A DNA stretch of 10,513 nt from an uncultured Eubacteriales bacterium (GTDB lineage: Bacteria; Bacillota_A; Clostridia; Peptostreptococcales; Anaerovoracaceae), in contig CACYHM010000016.1 of the NCBI GenBank assembly GCA_902774195.1, forward strand, positions 1-10,513, read 5' to 3'. Positions within the stretch are counted from its first letter, which is position 1. The number at the start of each line of letters is the position of its first letter. The notes under the pieces are model-generated. The model was not told the DNA's origin. It did no database searches and saw nothing but the letters and a program-made list of their open reading frames with translations. Below, piece after piece: positions 1 through 9,581 of this stretch. A program made the translations under genes and the position numbers.

Positions 1-29
1 GATTTGACGAAGAAAGTTTTTCAGGACCA

Positions 30-290
30 TTAAATGTCTCTTCCGTCATACTTTTTCGTCATCATCCTGATGAAATCATTATGAGCTTCATTTATAGCTC
101 TGTATTCAGCGGTAGTAATCCGTCCATTCATGTAATCGCTCGTAGCTTCTTTCCATTTGGCATCCAGTTCTACGGCGCGTTTACGTTCTTCTTCAGTCAG
201 CTGTTCCATAGTATACCCGCCTGCTACGGATTCGATATCCTCTATTCCCAGCTTCTTAAGCTCATCCTTGTAACATTTCTTGTCTTCCAT
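30..290 (-). CDS. Double-glycine leader peptide (paralogue A)
   Basis: An 86-residue protein with an N-terminal leader ending KLGIEDIESVAGG; the Gly-Gly is residues 24-25. Hydrophobic residues sit at -12, -7 and -4 and an acid at -8 from the cleavage point, as in leaders cut by C39-peptidase ABC exporters. The putative core (26-86) is highly charged, has no cysteine, is probably helical and contains GRITTAEY, which resembles the G-x-IT-x-x-E-Y/F pattern of SHOCT-type helical hairpins (inference). The ATG is preceded by GGGAGG about 8 nt upstream. A terminator at 403-440 separates it from the other four peptide genes, so it probably has its own promoter, though I could not find a convincing one. 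It is a close paralogue of the 703-957 product: 49 of 84 aligned positions are identical by hand count. Function is unknown; a secreted peptide precursor is the best reading. Confidence is high for the gene and moderate for the role. Confidence 0.8.
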   Translation of the reverse strand: MEDKKCYKDELKKLGIEDIESVAGGYTMEQLTEEERKRAVELDAKWKEATSDYMNGRITTAEYRAINEAHNDFIRMMTKKYDGRDI

Positions 291-402
291 TTCTTTATCC
301 TCCCTTGTTTAGATCAGGTATTGTCTTTGTCAGCAATTTTTTTATCCATACCATATACAATTTTACGTATCAGGAGGAGACAGGGCAAGTGACACTCCTC
401 AG

Positions 403-440
403 CACAAAAAGAGAGCCTGCAGGTTTGACCCCGCAGGCTC
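403..440 (-). terminator. Rho-independent terminator after the peptide gene at 464
   Basis: Read on the minus strand, an 8-bp perfect stem (GAGCCTGC at 433-440 with GCAGGCTC at 413-420) encloses a 12-nt loop and is followed by TCTTTTTG. It begins 23 nt after the stop codon of the 464-658 gene. It should end the transcript covering the genes from 1596 down to 464 and isolate the last peptide gene (30-290). Confidence 0.8.
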
Positions 441-463
441 GCTGAAAGCTTAGCTCAGCCAAT

Positions 464-658
464 TCACAGACCCTTGCAATACTTTTCCCAGTACTCTTCT
501 CCGTAATACATATATGTGTCGAAGTCAGGGTCGTTAGGGTCCAGAGTGAAGTGCCTCTCTCTCCCGCCGGCGACTTTTTCGAGCAGGTCAGGATTTAATT
601 CAAAGTTTTCATCACTGTTGCTGAAATACCCGTCATTCTGTGGATTCTTCTTTGTCAT
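464..658 (-). CDS. Double-glycine leader peptide (short core, C)
   Basis: A 64-residue protein. The leader ends ELNPDLLEKVAGG with Gly-Gly at residues 31-32, giving a short 32-residue core (33-64) that is rich in Asp, Tyr and Glu and has one Cys (C61). I chose the ATG at 658 because AAGGAG lies 6 nt before it. A longer reading would use a GTG at 706 that overlaps the upstream stop and would add 16 residues without a good binding site. Residues 40-59 align without gaps to residues 68-87 of the 1330-1596 product, 10 of 20 identical, with a DPN..D.D..M.Y...YW.K pattern. The ELxPDLLE leader block is shared with the 1037-1306 product. It is the last gene of the multi-peptide unit, 44 nt after the 703-957 gene, and is followed by a terminator. 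A secreted RiPP or bacteriocin-like precursor is inferred; the activity is unknown. Confidence 0.78.
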   Translation of the reverse strand: MTKKNPQNDGYFSNSDENFELNPDLLEKVAGGRERHFTLDPNDPDFDTYMYYGEEYWEKYCKGL

Positions 659-702
659 GACTTTCTCCTTTACTGTTTCCTCCGTTGCTCCGGGACTACC
701 CG

Positions 703-957
703 TCACTTTCTATCGTACTTATTTATCATCATCCTGTGGGTCTCTTTCATCTCATCAGTTATAGCATCGTATTCAGCGTCAGTGATCCGGCCCTCTCCGA
801 GATCGCACAAGGCTTTTTTCCATTTTCTGTCCACTTCGATGATGCGCCTGCGGTCTTCTTCCGTCATGTCTTTCAATAAATATCCGCCGGCTACGGATTC
901 GAGATCCTCTATTCCCAGCTTCTGAAGTTCATCCTTGTAATATTTATTGTCTTCCAT
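703..957 (-). CDS. Double-glycine leader peptide (paralogue B)
   Basis: An 84-residue protein with leader KLGIEDLESVAGG (Gly-Gly at 24-25) and a 59-residue charged, probably helical core containing GRITDAEY and one Cys. The start is taken at the internal ATG at 957, because AAGGAG lies 9 nt upstream and because it then begins MED like its paralogue at 30-290. The longer reading from 999 would add 14 residues. Leader identity to the paralogue is 21 of 25 but core identity is only 28 of 59 (hand counts), the typical behaviour of RiPP precursor families in which the enzyme-recognised leader is constrained. It lies 79 nt after the 1037-1306 gene; I found no strong promoter in that gap, so co-transcription is likely. 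Its function is unknown. Confidence 0.8.
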   Translation of the reverse strand: MEDNKYYKDELQKLGIEDLESVAGGYLLKDMTEEDRRRIIEVDRKWKKALCDLGEGRITDAEYDAITDEMKETHRMMINKYDRK

Positions 958-1036
958 TTCTATGGACTCCTTATATCCTTCTGTCATCCTGCTTTTCATG
1001 TTATGTACCGTTTTATCAGATATTGTAATTTAAGTA

Positions 1037-1306
1037 TTAATCATCCCATTCAATTTTTCTCTTTTGACATAACTCGCATTCATAGACAGAGTTATATCCC
1101 CAGATCACGCCCTTTTTTCTGCCGATAAATTTCCATTTGTGCTGACATCCGGTATCTATTCCTTCTCCTCCTCCTCCTGAAGCTCCCTCCAGCAGGTCAG
1201 GTGAAAGCTCGATCTTATTATCCGCGATGAATTTCATCCGCTCTTCGTGAGTTTTACATTTTCTTGCTTCTTCAAGCATCTCTTCTGTGAGTTCATCTAT
1301 CTTCAT
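1037..1306 (-). CDS. Nif11-like/double-glycine leader peptide with zinc-ribbon-like core (D)
   Basis: An 89-residue protein. Residues 1-45 form a long leader: a helical, acidic stretch (LTEEMLEEARKCKTHEER) and then IELSPDLLEGASGG with Gly-Gly at 44-45. This size and layout recall Nif11-type leaders of Clostridia (family knowledge); I cannot run the domain model. The core (46-89) starts with a glycine-rich patch and then has C54-x-H56 and, 20 residues later, C77-x-x-C80, a CxH...CxxC arrangement expected to bind zinc. Aromatic residues W58, W69, Y71, Y75 and W87 surround it. A GAGGA binding site sits 7 nt before the ATG, and the gene begins 23 nt after the 1330-1596 gene, so the two are probably one transcript. 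Either a secreted metal-binding peptide or an intracellular zinc ribbon with a fortuitous GG is possible; the shared leader block with the 464-658 product favours export. Confidence 0.75.
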   Translation of the reverse strand: MKIDELTEEMLEEARKCKTHEERMKFIADNKIELSPDLLEGASGGGGEGIDTGCQHKWKFIGRKKGVIWGYNSVYECELCQKRKIEWDD

Positions 1307-1329
1307 TGTGTCTTCCTCTTTACTATAGT

Positions 1330-1596
1330 TCAGATTTTCCCCCAGTACTTGTCAAAATATGCCATGATCTCATCATAGTCTTCCGGATTCGGATCTGTTG
1401 AAAGCAGCGTAGGCTGCTTGCGCCATACAGCCTGTATGTCTCTTTCCGCAATTTCCTTATCAGGCTCCATACTATGAAGGCCTATCATGTACTGCCTGAG
1501 CTGGTCGTATCTGACCGCGCCGCCTGCGACTCCATCCAGTTCATCAATATCGATCTTATACTTCCCGATGAATTCTTCTAATTGTTTTTCATTCAT
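1330..1596 (-). CDS. Double-glycine leader peptide (E)
   Basis: An 88-residue protein. The leader MNEKQLEEFIGKYKIDIDEL leads to DGVAGG, with Gly-Gly at 25-26, I at -12, E at -8, L at -7 and V at -4. The 62-residue core contains no cysteine and ends with DPNPEDYDEIMAYFDKYWGK (68-87), which matches the core tail of the 464-658 product at 10 of 20 positions. I placed the start at 1596 because GGGAGG lies 6-7 nt upstream. The alternative ATG at 1611 overlaps that binding site. This is the first peptide gene, 88 nt after the zinc-ribbon gene ending at 1685, with a possible promoter in the gap. It is probably a secreted peptide precursor; the modification and activity are unknown. Confidence 0.77.
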   Translation of the reverse strand: MNEKQLEEFIGKYKIDIDELDGVAGGAVRYDQLRQYMIGLHSMEPDKEIAERDIQAVWRKQPTLLSTDPNPEDYDEIMAYFDKYWGKI

Positions 1597-1623
1597 ATCA
1601 GAACCTCCCATATTTATGATCTA

Positions 1624-1652
1624 TACATACGATATACGGGTTTGCGTTTCAA
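1624..1652 (-). promoter_or_regulatory. Possible promoter for the peptide cluster
   Basis: On the minus strand TTGAAA (1647-1652) is followed after 17 nt by TATGTA (1624-1629), with TATAGA overlapping as an alternative -10. The -35 box lies inside a short dyad, GTTTG-AAACG-CAAAC. The -35 is good and the -10 mediocre, so the call is weak. If false, the peptide genes would be transcribed from the acyltransferase operon upstream, since I see no terminator between 1685 and 1596. Confidence 0.35.
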
Positions 1653-1684
1653 ACGGAGACATGGCAAGCGGCTTCTCAGGCACT

Positions 1685-1975
1685 TCAGAAAAACTTTCCA
1701 TGCTCATCTTTGAACACGAAGTCCGAGGTGCCGCCGCAGGCCATGCACTTGAAAGACCTGTATCCGAAGCCTTCTCCGCAGCCCCCGAAGCCCGTCTGCA
1801 GGTCTCCGGAACCGCAGAAAGCACATTTCAGTTCCGCATCGCCCAGGCGGTCATCGACCGCCCTGTGCTGACCGTAGTTCGGCAGCTTCCTCAGATCTGT
1901 TATGTTTTGTTCTTCATGACTGAGATCCACGCGCCGCGCATCGTCTTCAGTCATCACCCATTTGCCATCCGCCAT
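1685..1975 (-). CDS. Small zinc-ribbon protein, unknown function
   Basis: A 96-residue protein with two CxxC knuckles, C51-AF-C54 and C77-MA-C80, 22 residues apart, plus C66 in the glycine-rich linker (GFGGCGEGFG). This is the classic layout of a zinc ribbon (inference from spacing; the fold was not tested). The first 45 residues are charged and contain no recognisable domain. There is no double-glycine leader, signal peptide or membrane segment, so it is probably cytoplasmic. AGGTGG lies about 4-6 nt before the ATG. It follows the PlsC-like gene by 21 nt and is likely in the same operon. It lies just upstream of the peptide cluster, one member of which (1037-1306) also has a zinc-ribbon-like core with GY.S...C..C spacing. 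I do not recognise a named family. Confidence 0.75.
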   Translation of the reverse strand: MADGKWVMTEDDARRVDLSHEEQNITDLRKLPNYGQHRAVDDRLGDAELKCAFCGSGDLQTGFGGCGEGFGYRSFKCMACGGTSDFVFKDEHGKFF

Positions 1976-1996
1976 AGATCCACCTGCTTCTCCCGG

Positions 1997-2743
1997 TCAT
2001 TTCCTGTTTACGGGATAATCCTTCTTCGGTATATTCGGATACGGCACCACCGTATGCTCCGGCAGCGCTCTTGCGATGTCCGTTATCTCTTTCATCAGGT
2101 ATCCGTTTATCCTTTTTCTCTCTTCGTTCTTCGGAGCGCTGCTGTCGAATCTTACAGGCCTGCCCAGATACATGCCCTTCAGCGCCGGAGCAATATACAG
2201 CGGCACAAAGCAGATCTCCTTGCCCGTCTTTTTGTGATACATACGGGCGACGTCTGTGTAGCGTTCCTGGAATTCGTACAGTATATCGTTATACGGAACA
2301 TTATGCTCCGGGAATATCACTACGCTTATCCCCTGCACGAGTTTGTCCACAGTAGTCCGGAAAGTCGACATAACGCGGGTCCCGTGATAGACGCCTATGC
2401 AGTTCGCGTTGTTGAACACACAGACAGAGACCGGTGCTATGAGATACGAAAGGATGCGAAAGAACCACCTGTTATACGCAGGCTTGTTCGACCAGAAGTC
2501 CTGAAACGCATAGGCCGGAACCTCTTTCAGATGCATCATCTCGCCTGCGCACCAGGTATATCTTTCGGCCGGAAAGTAAAGCTCGCAGCTTATCGGCCCG
2601 TTCATCTTACAGTGATTTCCCACCGCTATGAAAGGCTCGCCTTCAGGAAGGTTCTCTGTCCCGTGTGCCGTGATCTTCGGGTAAAACAGCTTTACCAGCC
2701 AACGTATTATTCTGTAGCAGCGATAGGATATACGCTCTTTCAT
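1997..2743 (-). CDS. PlsC-like lysophospholipid/1-acylglycerol-3-phosphate acyltransferase family protein
   Basis: A 248-residue protein of the PlsC/LPLAT fold, which transfers acyl groups to lysophosphatidic acid or related acceptors at the membrane. Residues 38-50 (FIAVGNHCKMNGP) hold the first acyltransferase block with H44. The usual HX4D is not met: the Asp position is G49, preceded by N48. The later FPEG-type block reads FPEHN at 144-148, followed by a PLYIAPALKG segment (181-190). The length fits the family, and a hydrophobic patch at 97-110 could be membrane-associated. The missing Asp suggests a divergent clade rather than a damaged gene, since the frame is intact and the other blocks are present. 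The gene starts 9 nt after the stop of the E2-like gene and has no clear ribosome binding site, so translational coupling is likely. The substrate cannot be told from sequence. Confidence 0.82.
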   Translation of the reverse strand: MKERISYRCYRIIRWLVKLFYPKITAHGTENLPEGEPFIAVGNHCKMNGPISCELYFPAERYTWCAGEMMHLKEVPAYAFQDFWSNKPAYNRWFFRILSYLIAPVSVCVFNNANCIGVYHGTRVMSTFRTTVDKLVQGISVVIFPEHNVPYNDILYEFQERYTDVARMYHKKTGKEICFVPLYIAPALKGMYLGRPVRFDSSAPKNEERKRINGYLMKEITDIARALPEHTVVPYPNIPKKDYPVNRK

Positions 2744-2752
2744 CGCGTGGGG

Positions 2753-3643
2753 CTAAAACTCTACAGGCTCGCCCATAGGCCTCTCAAGGAGTTCAGGCTC
2801 CTCGAGCAGCTTCTTCAGCAGGCGGACCGACTTTGAGCAGTAGTATCCGTCGGAGATCCTCTCATCGATGGTGAGGCCGATATCGACGCTCATGCGCATC
2901 TCCATCCTGCCCTTCTCATCATAGTAAGGTCTCTCTTTCATCTCTCCGATGATGACGAACACCGATGTAGTGCCCCAGTTGGTGAGATGATGGTATCCCG
3001 CTTTCAGCTTTATTGAGCCGAGGTTCGAGAGCACGACCGACTGCTGGAACGGATCAGTGGCGATCACCGACTGAGGCATCCAGCCGTGTCTGTCGAGGAA
3101 TCTCGCCCCGGTGCCGAGCAGCTTCTTCAGAGGCAGCGGAGTCTTCTGAAGCATGTCCATGCTTTCAGTGGACTGGTCCTTGCCCTCGTGACGGACATAA
3201 GATACCTGCCTGTATATCTCATCGTGCACGCTGTCAAGCGTGAAATCCTCTTTCGAATGTATTACCGCCAGCGCTTCATCACCGTCATCGGAGAAGATCT
3301 TCTTCACCGTGAATGCCGCGGTCACCTCGTTGCGCTGATACAGATTGTAGTTCGCGATAAAGCGGTTCAGCTGCGGGCGCAGGGTGATGGTCTTCAGTAC
3401 AGCAGTTACCATCAGCTGAAAGAAGTTGTATTTGTATTCCGGGCCGGCTGCATTCTTCTTTTCGAGAAAGGCCATGGCATTCGTCAGATCGATCTGCTCT
3501 GAGATGTAAGCCTCGTTGTCGCAGCGGTTAGGGTACATCAGAGGCATTATGAAATGCATCGAATCGATGTCCTTAAGCAGTTTCCCGTCCCTTCTGTCTC
3601 CCCATGCAGGAAGTCTTATCCCTTTGATATTGATCATATTCAT
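2753..3643 (-). CDS. Standalone 2-oxoacid dehydrogenase E2-type acyltransferase-fold protein
   Basis: A 296-residue protein resembling the catalytic domain of dihydrolipoamide acyltransferases (chloramphenicol-acetyltransferase fold). It has no lipoyl or peripheral-subunit-binding domain. Recognisable blocks are FFQLMVTAVLKTITLRPQLN (74-93), NEVTAAFTVKK (105-115), SVVLSNLGS (202-210) and DERISDG (260-266). The last corresponds to the DHRxxDG active-site motif, but the catalytic His is Glu261; Asp265 and Gly266 are kept. It is therefore unlikely to work as an E2 subunit, and no E1 or E3 gene is nearby. It may acylate another acceptor or act non-catalytically. The ATG at 3643 was chosen because homology begins there; an upstream TTG at 3736 lies inside the predicted -35 box. 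A strong AGGAGG at 3688-3693 is oddly 44 nt upstream of this ATG with no start codon nearby. It is the first gene of an operon with the PlsC-like gene. Confidence 0.75.
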   Translation of the reverse strand: MNMINIKGIRLPAWGDRRDGKLLKDIDSMHFIMPLMYPNRCDNEAYISEQIDLTNAMAFLEKKNAAGPEYKYNFFQLMVTAVLKTITLRPQLNRFIANYNLYQRNEVTAAFTVKKIFSDDGDEALAVIHSKEDFTLDSVHDEIYRQVSYVRHEGKDQSTESMDMLQKTPLPLKKLLGTGARFLDRHGWMPQSVIATDPFQQSVVLSNLGSIKLKAGYHHLTNWGTTSVFVIIGEMKERPYYDEKGRMEMRMSVDIGLTIDERISDGYYCSKSVRLLKKLLEEPELLERPMGEPVEF

Positions 3644-3706
3644 ACGGCGCCCGTGTCCCCTGTCTTCAAGCCGGACCGGTCCGCCTTCCTCCTTTTCACA
3701 GGATAT

Positions 3707-3736
3707 ATGATAATAAAAAACGGCTGTATGTTTCAA
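3707..3736 (-). promoter_or_regulatory. Predicted sigma-A promoter of the E2-like/PlsC operon
   Basis: On the minus strand TTGAAA (3731-3736, 5 of 6 to consensus) is followed after 18 nt by TATCAT (3707-3712, 5 of 6). Transcription would begin near 3700, about 57 nt before the ATG at 3643. The -35 lies in the loop and right arm of the hairpin at 3721-3742, so a dyad-binding regulator could act here. The same bases can also be read as a hairpin plus U-tract terminator. Confidence 0.45.
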
Positions 3737-3742
3737 CAGTCG
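3721..3742. repeat. Hairpin, copy 1 of a repeated dyad (second copy at 9652-9675)
   Basis: Arms CGGCTGT (3721-3727) and ACAGTCG (3736-3742) enclose an 8-nt loop. Six A residues precede it (3715-3720), so on the minus strand it is followed by TTTTTTATT, like an intrinsic terminator. The 18-mer at 3722-3739 matches 9654-9671 at 17 positions. No minus-strand gene ends shortly before it: the nearest is at 4815, more than 1 kb away and antisense to the gene at 3757. Confidence 0.55.
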
Positions 3743-3756
3743 TTTGATGTGATACT

Positions 3757-4818
3757 ATGTTCCATGAGGATATGAAACAGACTGACAAGAGGATCGCAAA
3801 ATCTATCAGGATCTCTGTCATCCTGCTGTGCGCGGCAGGAATGCTTTTGATTGCCGCACGGTATGCAGGCGGCTTTGCGCAGTGGTACAGCGTCAATGTC
3901 TATTCTCTGATCACAGCGACCGCAGGCCGTCTTTCCGGCGCAGCGCCGTTCTCGGTCGCCGAAGCCGCAGTCTGCGTCCTGCCTTTTATCATCATCGCGG
4001 ATCTCATCCGCTGCCGCAAGAGACTCAGAGAAGCCTTTTCACGCATCCTTCTGCTCGTATCTGTGCTTTTCTTCCTTTACGCTGCAAACTGCGGAGTAAA
4101 CTACCACAGAGACACGTTCGCAGATACAGAGGCTCTGTCCGGTGCGGAGTTTACAAAAGATCAGCTGGCGGAATTCTGTGAATACATAATCTCAAATCTG
4201 TATGAATGCGGTCCGTATCCTGAATATCCTCAGGGCAGCGAACTTGCCGGTGAGGCACGTAAGTCCATGACAAAGCTTTCGGAGCATGAGCCGTCACTCC
4301 GCGGGTATTATCCTGCCCCAAAGCAGCTCACCGTACTTTCCGGAGCTTTCTCAGCCATGGGTGTCAGCGGTATCTACTCACCTTTCACCGTTGAAGCAAA
4401 CATAAACGGAGAGATGCCGGATATGGAAAAGCCCTTTACCGCGTGCCATGAGCTTTCACACCTGAGGGGATACATGAATGAAGGGGAGGCCAGCTATATA
4501 GGCTGGCTGGCCTGCACAGGATCTGACGATCAGTCATTCAAAAGAAGCGGGTGGCTCATTGCATGGGTATATGCAGGAGGCACCCTTAAAAGAGTCGATC
4601 CCGAGAGATATGACAGTCTGCGCGCAAAGCTTCCTTCGTACGCCGTCTCCGAGATCGAGGCCAACGATCTGTTCTGGTCTTCTCATGTAACAAAAGCTTC
4701 TGAAATACAGGACCGGGTCAACGATGCCTATCTGAAGGCGAACGGTCAGAAAGGCGGCATACAGTCGTACGGCATGCTGACCACGCTTATGCTGATGCAT
4801 TACTATTCAGCCCGCTAG
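3757..4818 (+). CDS. DUF3810-like membrane zinc metallopeptidase
   Basis: A 353-residue protein, the only plus-strand gene. Three hydrophobic segments lie near 18-36, 66-84 and 96-112, followed by a large domain with ACHELSHLRGYMNEGEAS, whose HELSH (231-235) is a gluzincin-type HExxH zinc motif; E242 or E244 could be the third ligand. This arrangement fits the DUF3810 family of membrane-anchored putative peptidases (recognised from memory; no search run). Its substrate is unknown. The start is uncertain: ATG at 3757 and ATG at 3772 are both in frame and neither has a good ribosome binding site. A hairpin (3721-3742) sits just upstream. It is divergent from the E2-like operon and converges with the phosphatase gene, their stop codons sharing the tetramer CTAG at 4815-4818. 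No terminator follows it. Confidence 0.8.
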   Translation: MFHEDMKQTDKRIAKSIRISVILLCAAGMLLIAARYAGGFAQWYSVNVYSLITATAGRLSGAAPFSVAEAAVCVLPFIIIADLIRCRKRLREAFSRILLLVSVLFFLYAANCGVNYHRDTFADTEALSGAEFTKDQLAEFCEYIISNLYECGPYPEYPQGSELAGEARKSMTKLSEHEPSLRGYYPAPKQLTVLSGAFSAMGVSGIYSPFTVEANINGEMPDMEKPFTACHELSHLRGYMNEGEASYIGWLACTGSDDQSFKRSGWLIAWVYAGGTLKRVDPERYDSLRAKLPSYAVSEIEANDLFWSSHVTKASEIQDRVNDAYLKANGQKGGIQSYGMLTTLMLMHYYSAR

Positions 4819-8880: not shown

Positions 8881-9581
8881 TACCATTCCACCTCTTCTGC
8901 TGATAATGGATCCGGCTGTTCATCGACGGATGTGACCTTGCCGCTCCTTATGTGTATCACTGTATCCGCCATCCTGGCGATATTCTGGTTGTGCGTCACT
9001 ATGATTATCGTCTTGCCGTATTCCCTCGCCATTCTGAGAAGGAGTTTGAGCACTACAACGCCCGTTTCGGAATCGAGTGCTCCGGTAGGCTCATCGCAAA
9101 GCAGTATGCTCGGATTCTTTGCCAGCGCCCTGCAGATGGAAACTCTCTGCTGCTCTCCTCCGGACAGCTCGTGCGGGAACTGATGCGAATGATCGTCAAG
9201 GCCTACCTCTGCAAGGAGTTCTTCGGCGCTCATGTGATCGGGCGCTATCTCGTCTACCAGAGAGATGTTTTCAAGCACGGTGAGCGTCGGTATCAGATTG
9301 TATGACTGAAATACGAACCCCACCTTTGCCGCTCTGTAGTCTGCCAGCTCATCGCTGGAAAGAGTGGATATATCCGTTCCGTCTACGACTATCGTGCCTT
9401 CCGTAGGGTTGTCCAGACCTCCGAGCAGGTTGAGGAATGTACTCTTGCCTGCTCCGGACGGACCCAGGATGACCACAAACTTTCCCTTTTCGATCTCCAG
9501 GTCGACATCCGACAGCGCGTTCTGTGTATGGTCGCCTGTCACATATGTCCTTGTTACATTTTTGAATTGAACTATTTTCAT
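8880..9581 (-). CDS. ABC transporter ATP-binding protein, LolD/MacB type
   Basis: A 233-residue ATPase with all motifs: Walker A GPSGAGKS (40-47), Q-loop FQ (91-92), signature LSGGEQQ (139-145), Walker B ILLCDE (159-164) and switch His in VTHN (H197). The length and motif context fit the LolD/MacB/FtsE group, which powers FtsX-fold permeases. It overlaps the permease gene by one base in TAATG, so the two are translationally coupled and very likely form one complex. GAGGG lies 6 nt before the ATG at 9581. Upstream is a dyad next to a TATATT box that could be a repressor site, followed further upstream by the end of the GNAT unit. No two-component or MarR-type regulator gene is in the window. 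Confidence 0.93.
   Translation of the reverse strand: MKIVQFKNVTRTYVTGDHTQNALSDVDLEIEKGKFVVILGPSGAGKSTFLNLLGGLDNPTEGTIVVDGTDISTLSSDELADYRAAKVGFVFQSYNLIPTLTVLENISLVDEIAPDHMSAEELLAEVGLDDHSHQFPHELSGGEQQRVSICRALAKNPSILLCDEPTGALDSETGVVVLKLLLRMAREYGKTIIIVTHNQNIARMADTVIHIRSGKVTSVDEQPDPLSAEEVEW

What the first reader, a model, noticed from the sequence alone, without database searches (positions are those of the whole stretch)
30..1596. Cluster of five double-glycine leader peptides with long, charged, unusual cores
Five consecutive small minus-strand genes, each with its own ribosome binding site, encode products with hydrophobic residues at -12, -7 and -4 before a GG. This fits C39-peptidase leader rules (established knowledge). 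The cores (32-62 residues) are acidic or charged, mostly cysteine-free and poor in Ser/Thr, so they fit neither lanthipeptide nor typical class II bacteriocin cores. No maturation enzyme, immunity protein or C39 exporter is in the window. It may be a little-described family of exported peptides in Clostridia.
Basis: partly seen in the sequence, partly recalled or inferred. Interest (0 to 1): 0.78.

Follow-up and report, generated by a model that had tools for sequence, protein, structure and literature searches.

The report
Co-regulated exported small proteins, rumen bacterium
Five neighbouring genes in an uncultured gut-type bacterium appear to make small proteins carrying an export-and-cut tag, switched on from a promoter that related bacteria place before many scattered genes of the same sort; what the released proteins do is not known.

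Summary
In detail: five small genes at 30-1596 encode proteins with C39-type double-glycine (GG) leaders. The filter used gives 1 hit in 1.25 Mb of control DNA and 33 in 404 kb around C39 exporters. No family model matches them above cut-off. The window's genome is not held; its nearest held relative (G001, 86% DNA identity beside the cluster) has an NHLM-type C39 exporter and, scattered over its genome, relatives of all three core types.

New: both transcription units in the window start with [TG]GTCTCC-N17-GTATA. In six relatives that encode a particular ECF sigma factor (in at least three of them at the NHLM exporter locus) 17 of 35 exact sites lie directly before GG genes, against 0 of 56 sites examined elsewhere. 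In these six, and in a seventh judged by eye, a gene close behind the sigma gene encodes a small protein that itself carries a GG leader.

Best reading: an ECF-controlled regulon of small, probably unmodified proteins that share one exporter. FlgM-like, export-coupled control of the sigma is the bold reading, untested. Function of the cores is unknown; no export, cleavage or sigma recognition was shown.

The parts
30..290 (-). P1: 25-aa GG leader + 61-aa core of family A (hairpin by analogy with P3)
   Evidence: core similarity to P3, G001 and G002 peptides
464..658 (-). P2: 32-aa GG leader + 32-aa core of family B
   Evidence: core similar to P5 (0 of 1000 shuffles reach it); leader resembles that of G001 L169 by eye
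703..957 (-). P3: 25-aa GG leader + 59-aa core of family A
   Evidence: AlphaFold2: residues 1-30 pLDDT about 51-56, residues 31-80 about 83-91 with helices 33-55 and 60-81
1037..1306 (-). P4: 45-aa leader (to the first GG of a GGGG run) + 44-aa Cys/His core of family C
   Evidence: core matches G001 L168:4052-4489 (E 2.5e-14; z 18.5); model with three strands, mean pLDDT 72
1330..1596 (-). P5: 26-aa GG leader + 62-aa core of family B
   Evidence: core similar to G001 L170:1471-1743 (2 of 1000 shuffles reach it)
1633..1661 (-). promoter-like motif TGTCTCC-N17-GTATA, 36 nt before the P5 start; would drive P5-P4-P3-P2
354..382 (-). promoter-like motif TGTCTCC-N17-GTATA, 63 nt before the P1 start
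413..440 (-). intrinsic-terminator-like hairpin (11 pairs) with T run, between P2 and P1
   Evidence: 5 terminator-like sites found in 1-3800, 3.0 expected from shuffles

Best explanation
P1-P5 are precursors of small exported proteins. Each has a leader that the peptidase domain of a C39 (NHLM-type) ABC exporter would bind through residues -12, -7 and -4 and cut after GG, and a core that is pushed out and is probably not modified. The genes form two transcription units (P5-P4-P3-P2 and P1), each started by a [TG]GTCTCC-N17-GTATA promoter that a dedicated ECF sigma factor, encoded at the exporter locus in several relatives, most likely recognises. The same sigma would switch on a genome-wide scatter of GG genes and some proteins with signal-peptide-like starts (by eye). 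Shown by sequence: leaders, core families shared across species, the shared motif, its tie to the presence of the sigma gene. Inferred: recognition by that sigma, export, cleavage, absence of modification, and presence of sigma and exporter in the window's own genome. Function of the cores, my lean: envelope or community-interaction factors (about 0.45), interference competition next (about 0.35).
For: Leaders fit the C39 rule (Val-4, Leu-7, Leu-12 in the LahT structure, PMC6363468 passages). GG ORFs: 33 in 404,201 bases (26 loci) around C39/NHLM genes against 1 in 1,248,105 control bases. G001 has NHLM ABC1 and ABC2 matches just under the curated cut-offs (791.7 of 853.3 for a frame called short, 707.3 of 709.4) and a partial HlyD match far under it, and the Cys motif. 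All three core families recur in G001, family A also in G002. Leader and core are separable: P0016 carries the P1/P3 leader on a Cys-rich core; L168 carries the P4 core on a long leader with a sub-cut-off Nif11 match. Motif: 2 in the window, both before GG units; G001 11 sites genome-wide (reversed pattern 2), 8 directly before GG genes. Test in genomes not used to find it (G002, G155, G170, G176, G187): 9 of 24 sites directly before GG genes, against 0 of 56 examined sites in other genomes (Fisher p 5.6e-6; 1.8e-5 after collapsing near-identical sites to 47). Genus: the 5 of 47 genomes with the sigma have 11, 9, 5, 5 and 2 sites; the other 42 have 35 in all, at most 3 each. Spacing is 17 in 9 of 12 upstream regions.
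Against: The window's own genome is not held; exporter and sigma there are inferred from G001, another species by 85.6% DNA identity. The motif was found on window and G001 data, so their counts are not independent. 18 of 35 sites in sigma genomes are not directly before a GG gene; the reversed-pattern control gives 10 in the same six genomes, so some sites are chance. Some GG genes lack the exact motif, e.g. L101 and L170. Exporter and sigma do not always go together: G005, G008 and G010 have C39 matches but 0, 1 and 1 sites, and of the 11 family genomes over the NHLM ABC1 cut-off only G155 has the sigma. In 369,895 bases of 20 longer G001 contigs the filter gave one hit, spurious by eye. P1/P3 cores diverge freely (dN 0.44, dS 0.65), P3 against L101 is not significant (57 of 1000 shuffles), and P0139 carries the P5 leader joined to another reading frame of the P5 gene. 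SPASM matches occur in all 7 genomes searched, in G187 on contigs with motif sites, so modification is not excluded. The second G001 C39 match lacks the Cys.
Confidence: 0.78

Rival explanations
1. They are RiPP precursors: the cores are modified by an enzyme encoded elsewhere before export.
For: Nif11-type leaders are known mainly from RiPPs (general knowledge); SPASM matches in 7 of 7 genomes searched, in G187 on contigs C8 and C87 that also carry motif sites; a G187 GG peptide core is Cys- and aromatic-rich.
Against: No maturation enzyme among the window ORFs scanned and none recognised among 6 Pfam-scanned genes of the G001 exporter locus. Cores A and B have 0 or 1 Cys and few Ser/Thr. The A core is predicted to fold on its own. 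LanM and YcaO were not searched genome-wide.
Confidence: 0.12
2. They are classical class II bacteriocins that permeabilise membranes.
For: GG leaders, several small peptides together, fast-changing cores.
Against: No bacteriocin family match; charged cores; no immunity-like gene recognised in the window; other genes behind the motif include Fic, papain-like and DUF5666 proteins.
Confidence: 0.1
3. The motif is recognised by the housekeeping sigma or another regulator, and the tie to the ECF gene is indirect; the peptides are exported all the same.
For: No binding was shown; GTATA resembles part of a -10 box; L101 and L170 lack the exact motif.
Against: Site excess follows the presence of the sigma gene in 47 genus genomes (rank test p 1.3e-4); the motif also lies just before the sigma-linked GG gene in G001 and G176 and before the sigma gene in G170.
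Confidence: 0.2
4. Ordinary cytoplasmic small proteins with a chance GG, possibly antitoxin-like (weak VbhA match of P1).
For: P1 matches PF18495 VbhA at E 2.2e-4; a Fic gene follows a motif site in G001.
Against: The VbhA score of 21.6 is below the cut-off of 25.9 and P3 does not match; leaders are conserved while cores change; GG ORFs are about 100-fold denser at C39 loci than in control loci.
Confidence: 0.03

Closest known systems
NHLM/NHLP-Nif11 export system (TIGR03793/03794/03796/03797/03798; Haft et al. 2010, PMC2887384, passages read)
   Same: Same exporter families in G001 and other relatives; leaders ending in GG; several substrates per genome; precursor genes sometimes far from the enzyme genes; hypervariable cores.
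   Different: The five window leaders match neither the NHLP nor the Nif11 model; cores are long, partly folded and without a recognised modification enzyme; the words sigma, promoter and regulon do not occur in that paper's main text.
LahT/LahA of Lachnospiraceae C6A11 (PMC6363468, passages read)
   Same: C39 protease of a clostridial exporter, tolerant of diverse cores, reads residues -4, -7, -12.
   Different: LahA are lanthipeptide precursors in one cluster; here no lanthipeptide enzyme was recognised, and in G001 the GG genes are scattered.
EbfG1-4 and PteB of Synechococcus elongatus (PMC4997328, abstract and outline)
   Same: Small GG proteins whose efficient secretion depends on a peptidase transporter; they serve biofilm development.
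   Different: Cyanobacterial; no sequence comparison was made; 'sigma factor' and 'promoter' do not occur in its main text.
RtgAB with rtg GG peptides of pneumococcus (PMC7018657, outline and passages)
   Same: A C39 exporter with a co-regulated set of GG peptides.
   Different: Regulated by an Rgg/SHP-like system and encoded in one locus; here an ECF-type promoter and dispersed genes.
FlgM export-coupled anti-sigma control (recalled, no call)
   Same: Would be the analogue if the GG-leader protein behind the sigma restrains it.
   Different: FlgM leaves through the flagellar apparatus; anti-sigma activity was not shown here.

Membership tests
GG peptides exported by C39 (PCAT) transporters | leader ending GG with hydrophobic residues at -4, -7, -12 | tested here: met
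   5 of 5; Ala at -4 in P4
GG peptides exported by C39 (PCAT) transporters | C39 exporter with catalytic Cys in the same genome | tested here: inconclusive
   Window genome not held; present in nearest held relative G001
GG peptides exported by C39 (PCAT) transporters | cleavage after GG and export | not testable with these tools
   needs proteomics
Nif11-like leader precursors (TIGR03798, PF07862) | score above the curated cut-off | tested here: not met
   No match for P1-P5; L168, with the P4-type core, scores 23.4 against 32.3 and 21.9 against 23.8
NHLP leader precursors (TIGR03793) | score above the curated cut-off | tested here: not met
   No match for P1-P5
RiPP | modification enzyme beside the precursor | tested here: not met
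   None among the 14 window ORFs scanned; DNA beyond position 1 is not held
Class II bacteriocin | match to a described bacteriocin family | tested here: not met
VbhA antitoxin (PF18495) | score above the gathering cut-off | tested here: not met
   P1 21.6 bits against 25.9; P3 none
ECF sigma regulon proposed here | [TG]GTCTCC-N17-GTATA before the transcription unit | tested here: met
   Both units
ECF sigma regulon proposed here | linked ECF sigma gene in the same genome | not testable with these tools
   Window genome not held
Anti-sigma factor (for the GG-leader protein behind the sigma) | homology to a described anti-sigma family | tested here: not met
   No anti-sigma match in Pfam or among PDB sequences
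Anti-sigma factor (for the GG-leader protein behind the sigma) | binding to and inhibition of the sigma | not tested

The most novel reading that the evidence does not exclude
Transcription is coupled to export as with FlgM: the small protein encoded just behind the ECF sigma, which itself carries a C39 GG leader in all seven sigma-bearing genomes seen (six by search, one by eye), restrains the sigma; a free, working NHLM exporter cuts or removes it, the sigma is released, and the scattered GG genes (P1-P5 among them) are transcribed only when they can be exported.
Probability: 0.2. Interest if true: 0.92.

Novelty: new variant of a known kind. Interest (0 to 1): 0.7.

Why it matters
Small GG genes far from any exporter or modification enzyme are easily missed by mining that relies on neighbours. 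A shared promoter string with one fixed spacing gives a neighbour-free way to list likely substrates of such an exporter. It makes two questions testable: whether NHLM exporters in gut Clostridia serve many unmodified, folded small proteins, and whether their production is gated by export.

Tried and rejected
Close relatives of the peptides by DNA pattern: none confirmed in genome contigs or viral contigs with alignment A1; P1 found nothing in plasmids. Family libraries: no match above cut-off for P1-P6 in NCBIfam or Pfam, only weak ones in PADLOC and PHROGs; weak XkdX, SHOCT, Hha and VbhA matches set aside. Rfam: none in the window. Foldseek against PDB: no match at E 0.001 for the P4 or P3 models; the P4 zinc-ribbon idea rests on its Cys/His pattern and three strands only.

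Dropped as not significant: likeness of the P4 core to L149 (413 of 1000 shuffles reach it), L170a (133) and L171 (97) and to G187 L326 (209), and of P5 to G176 L320 (54; P2 against L320: 2 of 1000). P3 against L101 (57) is also not significant, though P1 against L101 is (0). P0014 was first taken for a different core on the P1/P3 leader; the alignment shows that it is a divergent family A member, so only P0016 is used for that point.

Anti-sigma homology of the sigma-linked GG protein: a profile of its first 36 residues gave 13 of 345 order genomes at E 0.01. Four are the same gene beside the same kind of sigma (G001, G155, G187, G420; the G420 sigma judged by eye); six further loci opened hold an unrelated protein of about 270 aa; four places were not opened. 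So anti-sigma function rests on gene order alone.

The first GG filter was looser: 14 hits in 80 control loci, mostly spurious, 5 in reversed DNA; 39 in 430,780 bases at C39 and G001 loci, 1 reversed. The acidic-residue condition was then added. One search counted only sites inside returned loci (56 sites, one per locus), not all sites in genomes without the sigma; 17 of the 56 had an ORF with RBS within 250 nt; one of the 56 (L232, G010) is from a genome that was not searched for the sigma; related genomes share some sites (47 after collapsing).

Full report
Observation. The leaders end ...LGIEDIESVAGG...LNPDLLEKVAGG...LGIEDLESVAGG...LSPDLLEGASGG and ...IDIDELDGVAGG. Residues -12, -7 and -4 are L/I, L/I and V (Ala in P4), as in the substrate bound to the C39 protease of LahT (Val-4, Leu-7, Leu-12; 13 C-terminal leader residues suffice; PMC6363468, passages). 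A scan for RBS, hydrophobics, at least two acidic residues and GG finds all five, 1 in 1,248,105 bases of 80 control loci (the genuine L001 peptide), 0 in 400,000 bases of G003, 1 (spurious by eye) in 369,895 bases of 20 longer G001 contigs, 33 in 404,201 bases (26 loci) around C39/NHLM genes, and 0 in reversed or complemented DNA of these sets. Twenty shorter G001 contigs (126,581 bases) gave 2, both plausible.

Organism. No genome is held for the window. The neighbour at 2753-3646 has relatives whose source names, where given, are Anaerovoracaceae and Mogibacterium (2 of 120 listed), and its best genome match, 96% identical, is rumen MAG RUG13917 (L001, genome G001). DNA identity to L001 is 85.6% over 2,057 bases, so G001 is a close but different species. 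At the same place after the P6 gene G001 has another GG peptide; against P3 its core is at most weakly similar (46 of 1000 shuffles; the others were not tested).

Core families. P1 and P3 share a core (A) with G001 peptides: P1 with all three tested (0 of 1000 shuffles), P3 with two (3 and 7 of 1000), not with L101 (57); both match one G002 peptide. P2 and P5 share a core (B), also in G001 L170. P4 (C) matches G001 L168 (E 2.5e-14) and L224. The P3 model shows a loose leader (pLDDT 51-56) and a helical hairpin core (83-91). Leader and core are modular: P0016 carries the P1/P3 leader on a Cys-rich core, and L168 carries the P4 core on a long leader with a sub-cut-off Nif11 match. Between P1 and P3 dN is 0.07 in the leader and 0.44 in the core (NG86; dS 0.24 and 0.65).

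Exporter. PF03412 matches lie in 5 of 11 close relatives. In G001 one lies in an NHLM locus: ABC1 791.7 bits (cut-off 853.3, from a frame called short at its start), ABC2 707.3 (709.4), and a partial HlyD far below its cut-off; its C39 has the LECGAA motif. The second, at C23, has Asn where the Cys should be. Of 148 family genomes 11 exceed the NHLM ABC1 cut-off. Such systems are known to serve several hypervariable precursors, and precursor genes can lie far from the enzyme genes (PMC2887384, passages). Elsewhere GG leaders sit on folded domains: L106 carries a bacterial SH3 core (PF08239, E 3.6e-8) beside an NHLM exporter.

Promoter. Comparing upstream regions showed [TG]GTCTCC-N17-GTATA before P5 and P1 and before most of the G001 GG genes then known. 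P5-P4-P3-P2 is one unit closed by a terminator-like hairpin at 440-413, P1 another. Spacing 17 occurs in 9 of 12 upstream regions, 10 in one, any other from 11 to 24 in none. G001 has 11 sites genome-wide (reversed pattern: 2), 8 directly before GG genes. Because the motif came from these data, the test is in other genomes.

Sigma. An ECF sigma (Sigma70_r2 E 1e-17, r4_2 E 1.2e-7) lies at L099:3490-4020 in the G001 exporter locus; homologs lie at exporter loci in G155 and G002 too. At E 1e-20 it is found in 2 of 148 family genomes (G001, G155) and 5 of 47 genus genomes (G001, G002, G170, G176, G187). These five have 11, 9, 2, 5 and 5 sites (reversed pattern 2, 3, 0, 2, 2); the other 42 have 35 together, at most 3 each (rank test p 1.3e-4). 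Outside G001 and G155, 146 family genomes have 44 sites (my count). In the five sigma genomes other than G001 (G002, G155, G170, G176, G187) 9 of 24 sites are directly before GG genes; with G001, 17 of 35; 0 of 56 examined in other genomes (near-identical sites collapsed: 0 of 47, p 1.8e-5). Other sites precede a papain-family protein (G187; a look-alike in G002), a DUF5666 protein (G176; a look-alike in G002) and a Fic protein (G001). Not every exporter genome has this sigma: of the 11 family genomes over the ABC1 cut-off only G155 does, so other control must exist.

Sigma-linked GG protein. In G001, G002, G155, G170, G176, G187 and G420 (the last by eye) a gene just behind the sigma (the second in G155 and G420) encodes a small protein with an N-terminal stretch (F, H, K invariant in the six aligned) joined to a GG leader. 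That is where anti-sigma genes often lie (general knowledge). In G002 the stretch is followed by a longer, Nif11-looking part (by eye). In the DNA held and the loci opened this stretch turned up only beside this sigma. Its role is inference; no homology to a known anti-sigma was found.

Mechanism. I read P1-P5 as substrates of an NHLM-type C39 exporter and members of an ECF sigma regulon. Function of the released cores is open: no immunity gene recognised in the window, a soluble-looking predicted fold and signal-peptide-like proteins behind the same motif lean to envelope or community roles (compare EbfG proteins, PMC4997328, abstract) over pore-forming bacteriocins. A precedent for a C39 exporter serving a co-regulated peptide set is RtgAB (PMC7018657, passages).

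Novelty. Exporter type and GG leaders are known; the core families match no family model, and I found no paper on the promoter or the sigma link. Searches on 'anti-sigma + double-glycine + exporter', 'ECF sigma + TGTCTC' and 'NHLM + bacteriocin + rumen' returned no paper; two broader ones held 37 and 110 papers, of which I saw the first 10 titles and abstract starts each, none joining sigma control with Nif11 or GG leaders of this kind. A 2026 survey of rumen isolate bacteriocins does not contain the words Nif11, NHLP or Mogibacterium in its main text (PMC13289728, term counts and passages). The library is open-access only.

Noticed in passing
window 1685-1975 (-): P6, a conserved 96-aa CxxC/CxxC protein without GG leader, sits between the cluster and the acyltransferase-like genes and is kept in L001.
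   Followed up: partly
L336:3010-3732 and 2544-2783 (G001:C71): A Fic protein gene (PF02661) follows a motif site and is followed by a peptide with a Nif11-looking leader; P1 has a weak match to the Fic antitoxin VbhA.
   Followed up: partly
G187:C8 and G187:C87: SPASM (radical SAM type) matches on the same contigs as motif sites, so part of the set in that species may be modified.
   Followed up: no
L106:9429-9746 and 8947-9240: GG leaders beside an NHLM exporter in G005; the first core is a bacterial SH3 domain, the second looks similar by eye.
   Followed up: partly
L100 (G001:C23): Second NHLM-type exporter whose C39 domain lacks the catalytic Cys and whose ABC1 frame appears split; no GG ORF found in the 19.9 kb held.
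   Followed up: partly
L099:4552-9663: DUF7005, a clostripain-family (C11) protein and DUF6765 genes lie between sigma and exporter in G001.
   Followed up: no
P0139 and P0013: Metagenomic proteins with the P5 or P1/P3 leader whose cores change abruptly; the end of P0139 equals another reading frame of the window's P5 gene.
   Followed up: partly
G001 contigs C59, C101, C120, C133; window position 1: Several GG genes of G001 lie on contigs of 5.7-9.4 kb, and P1 ends 29 bases from the window's start; near-identical leaders may break assemblies.
   Followed up: no
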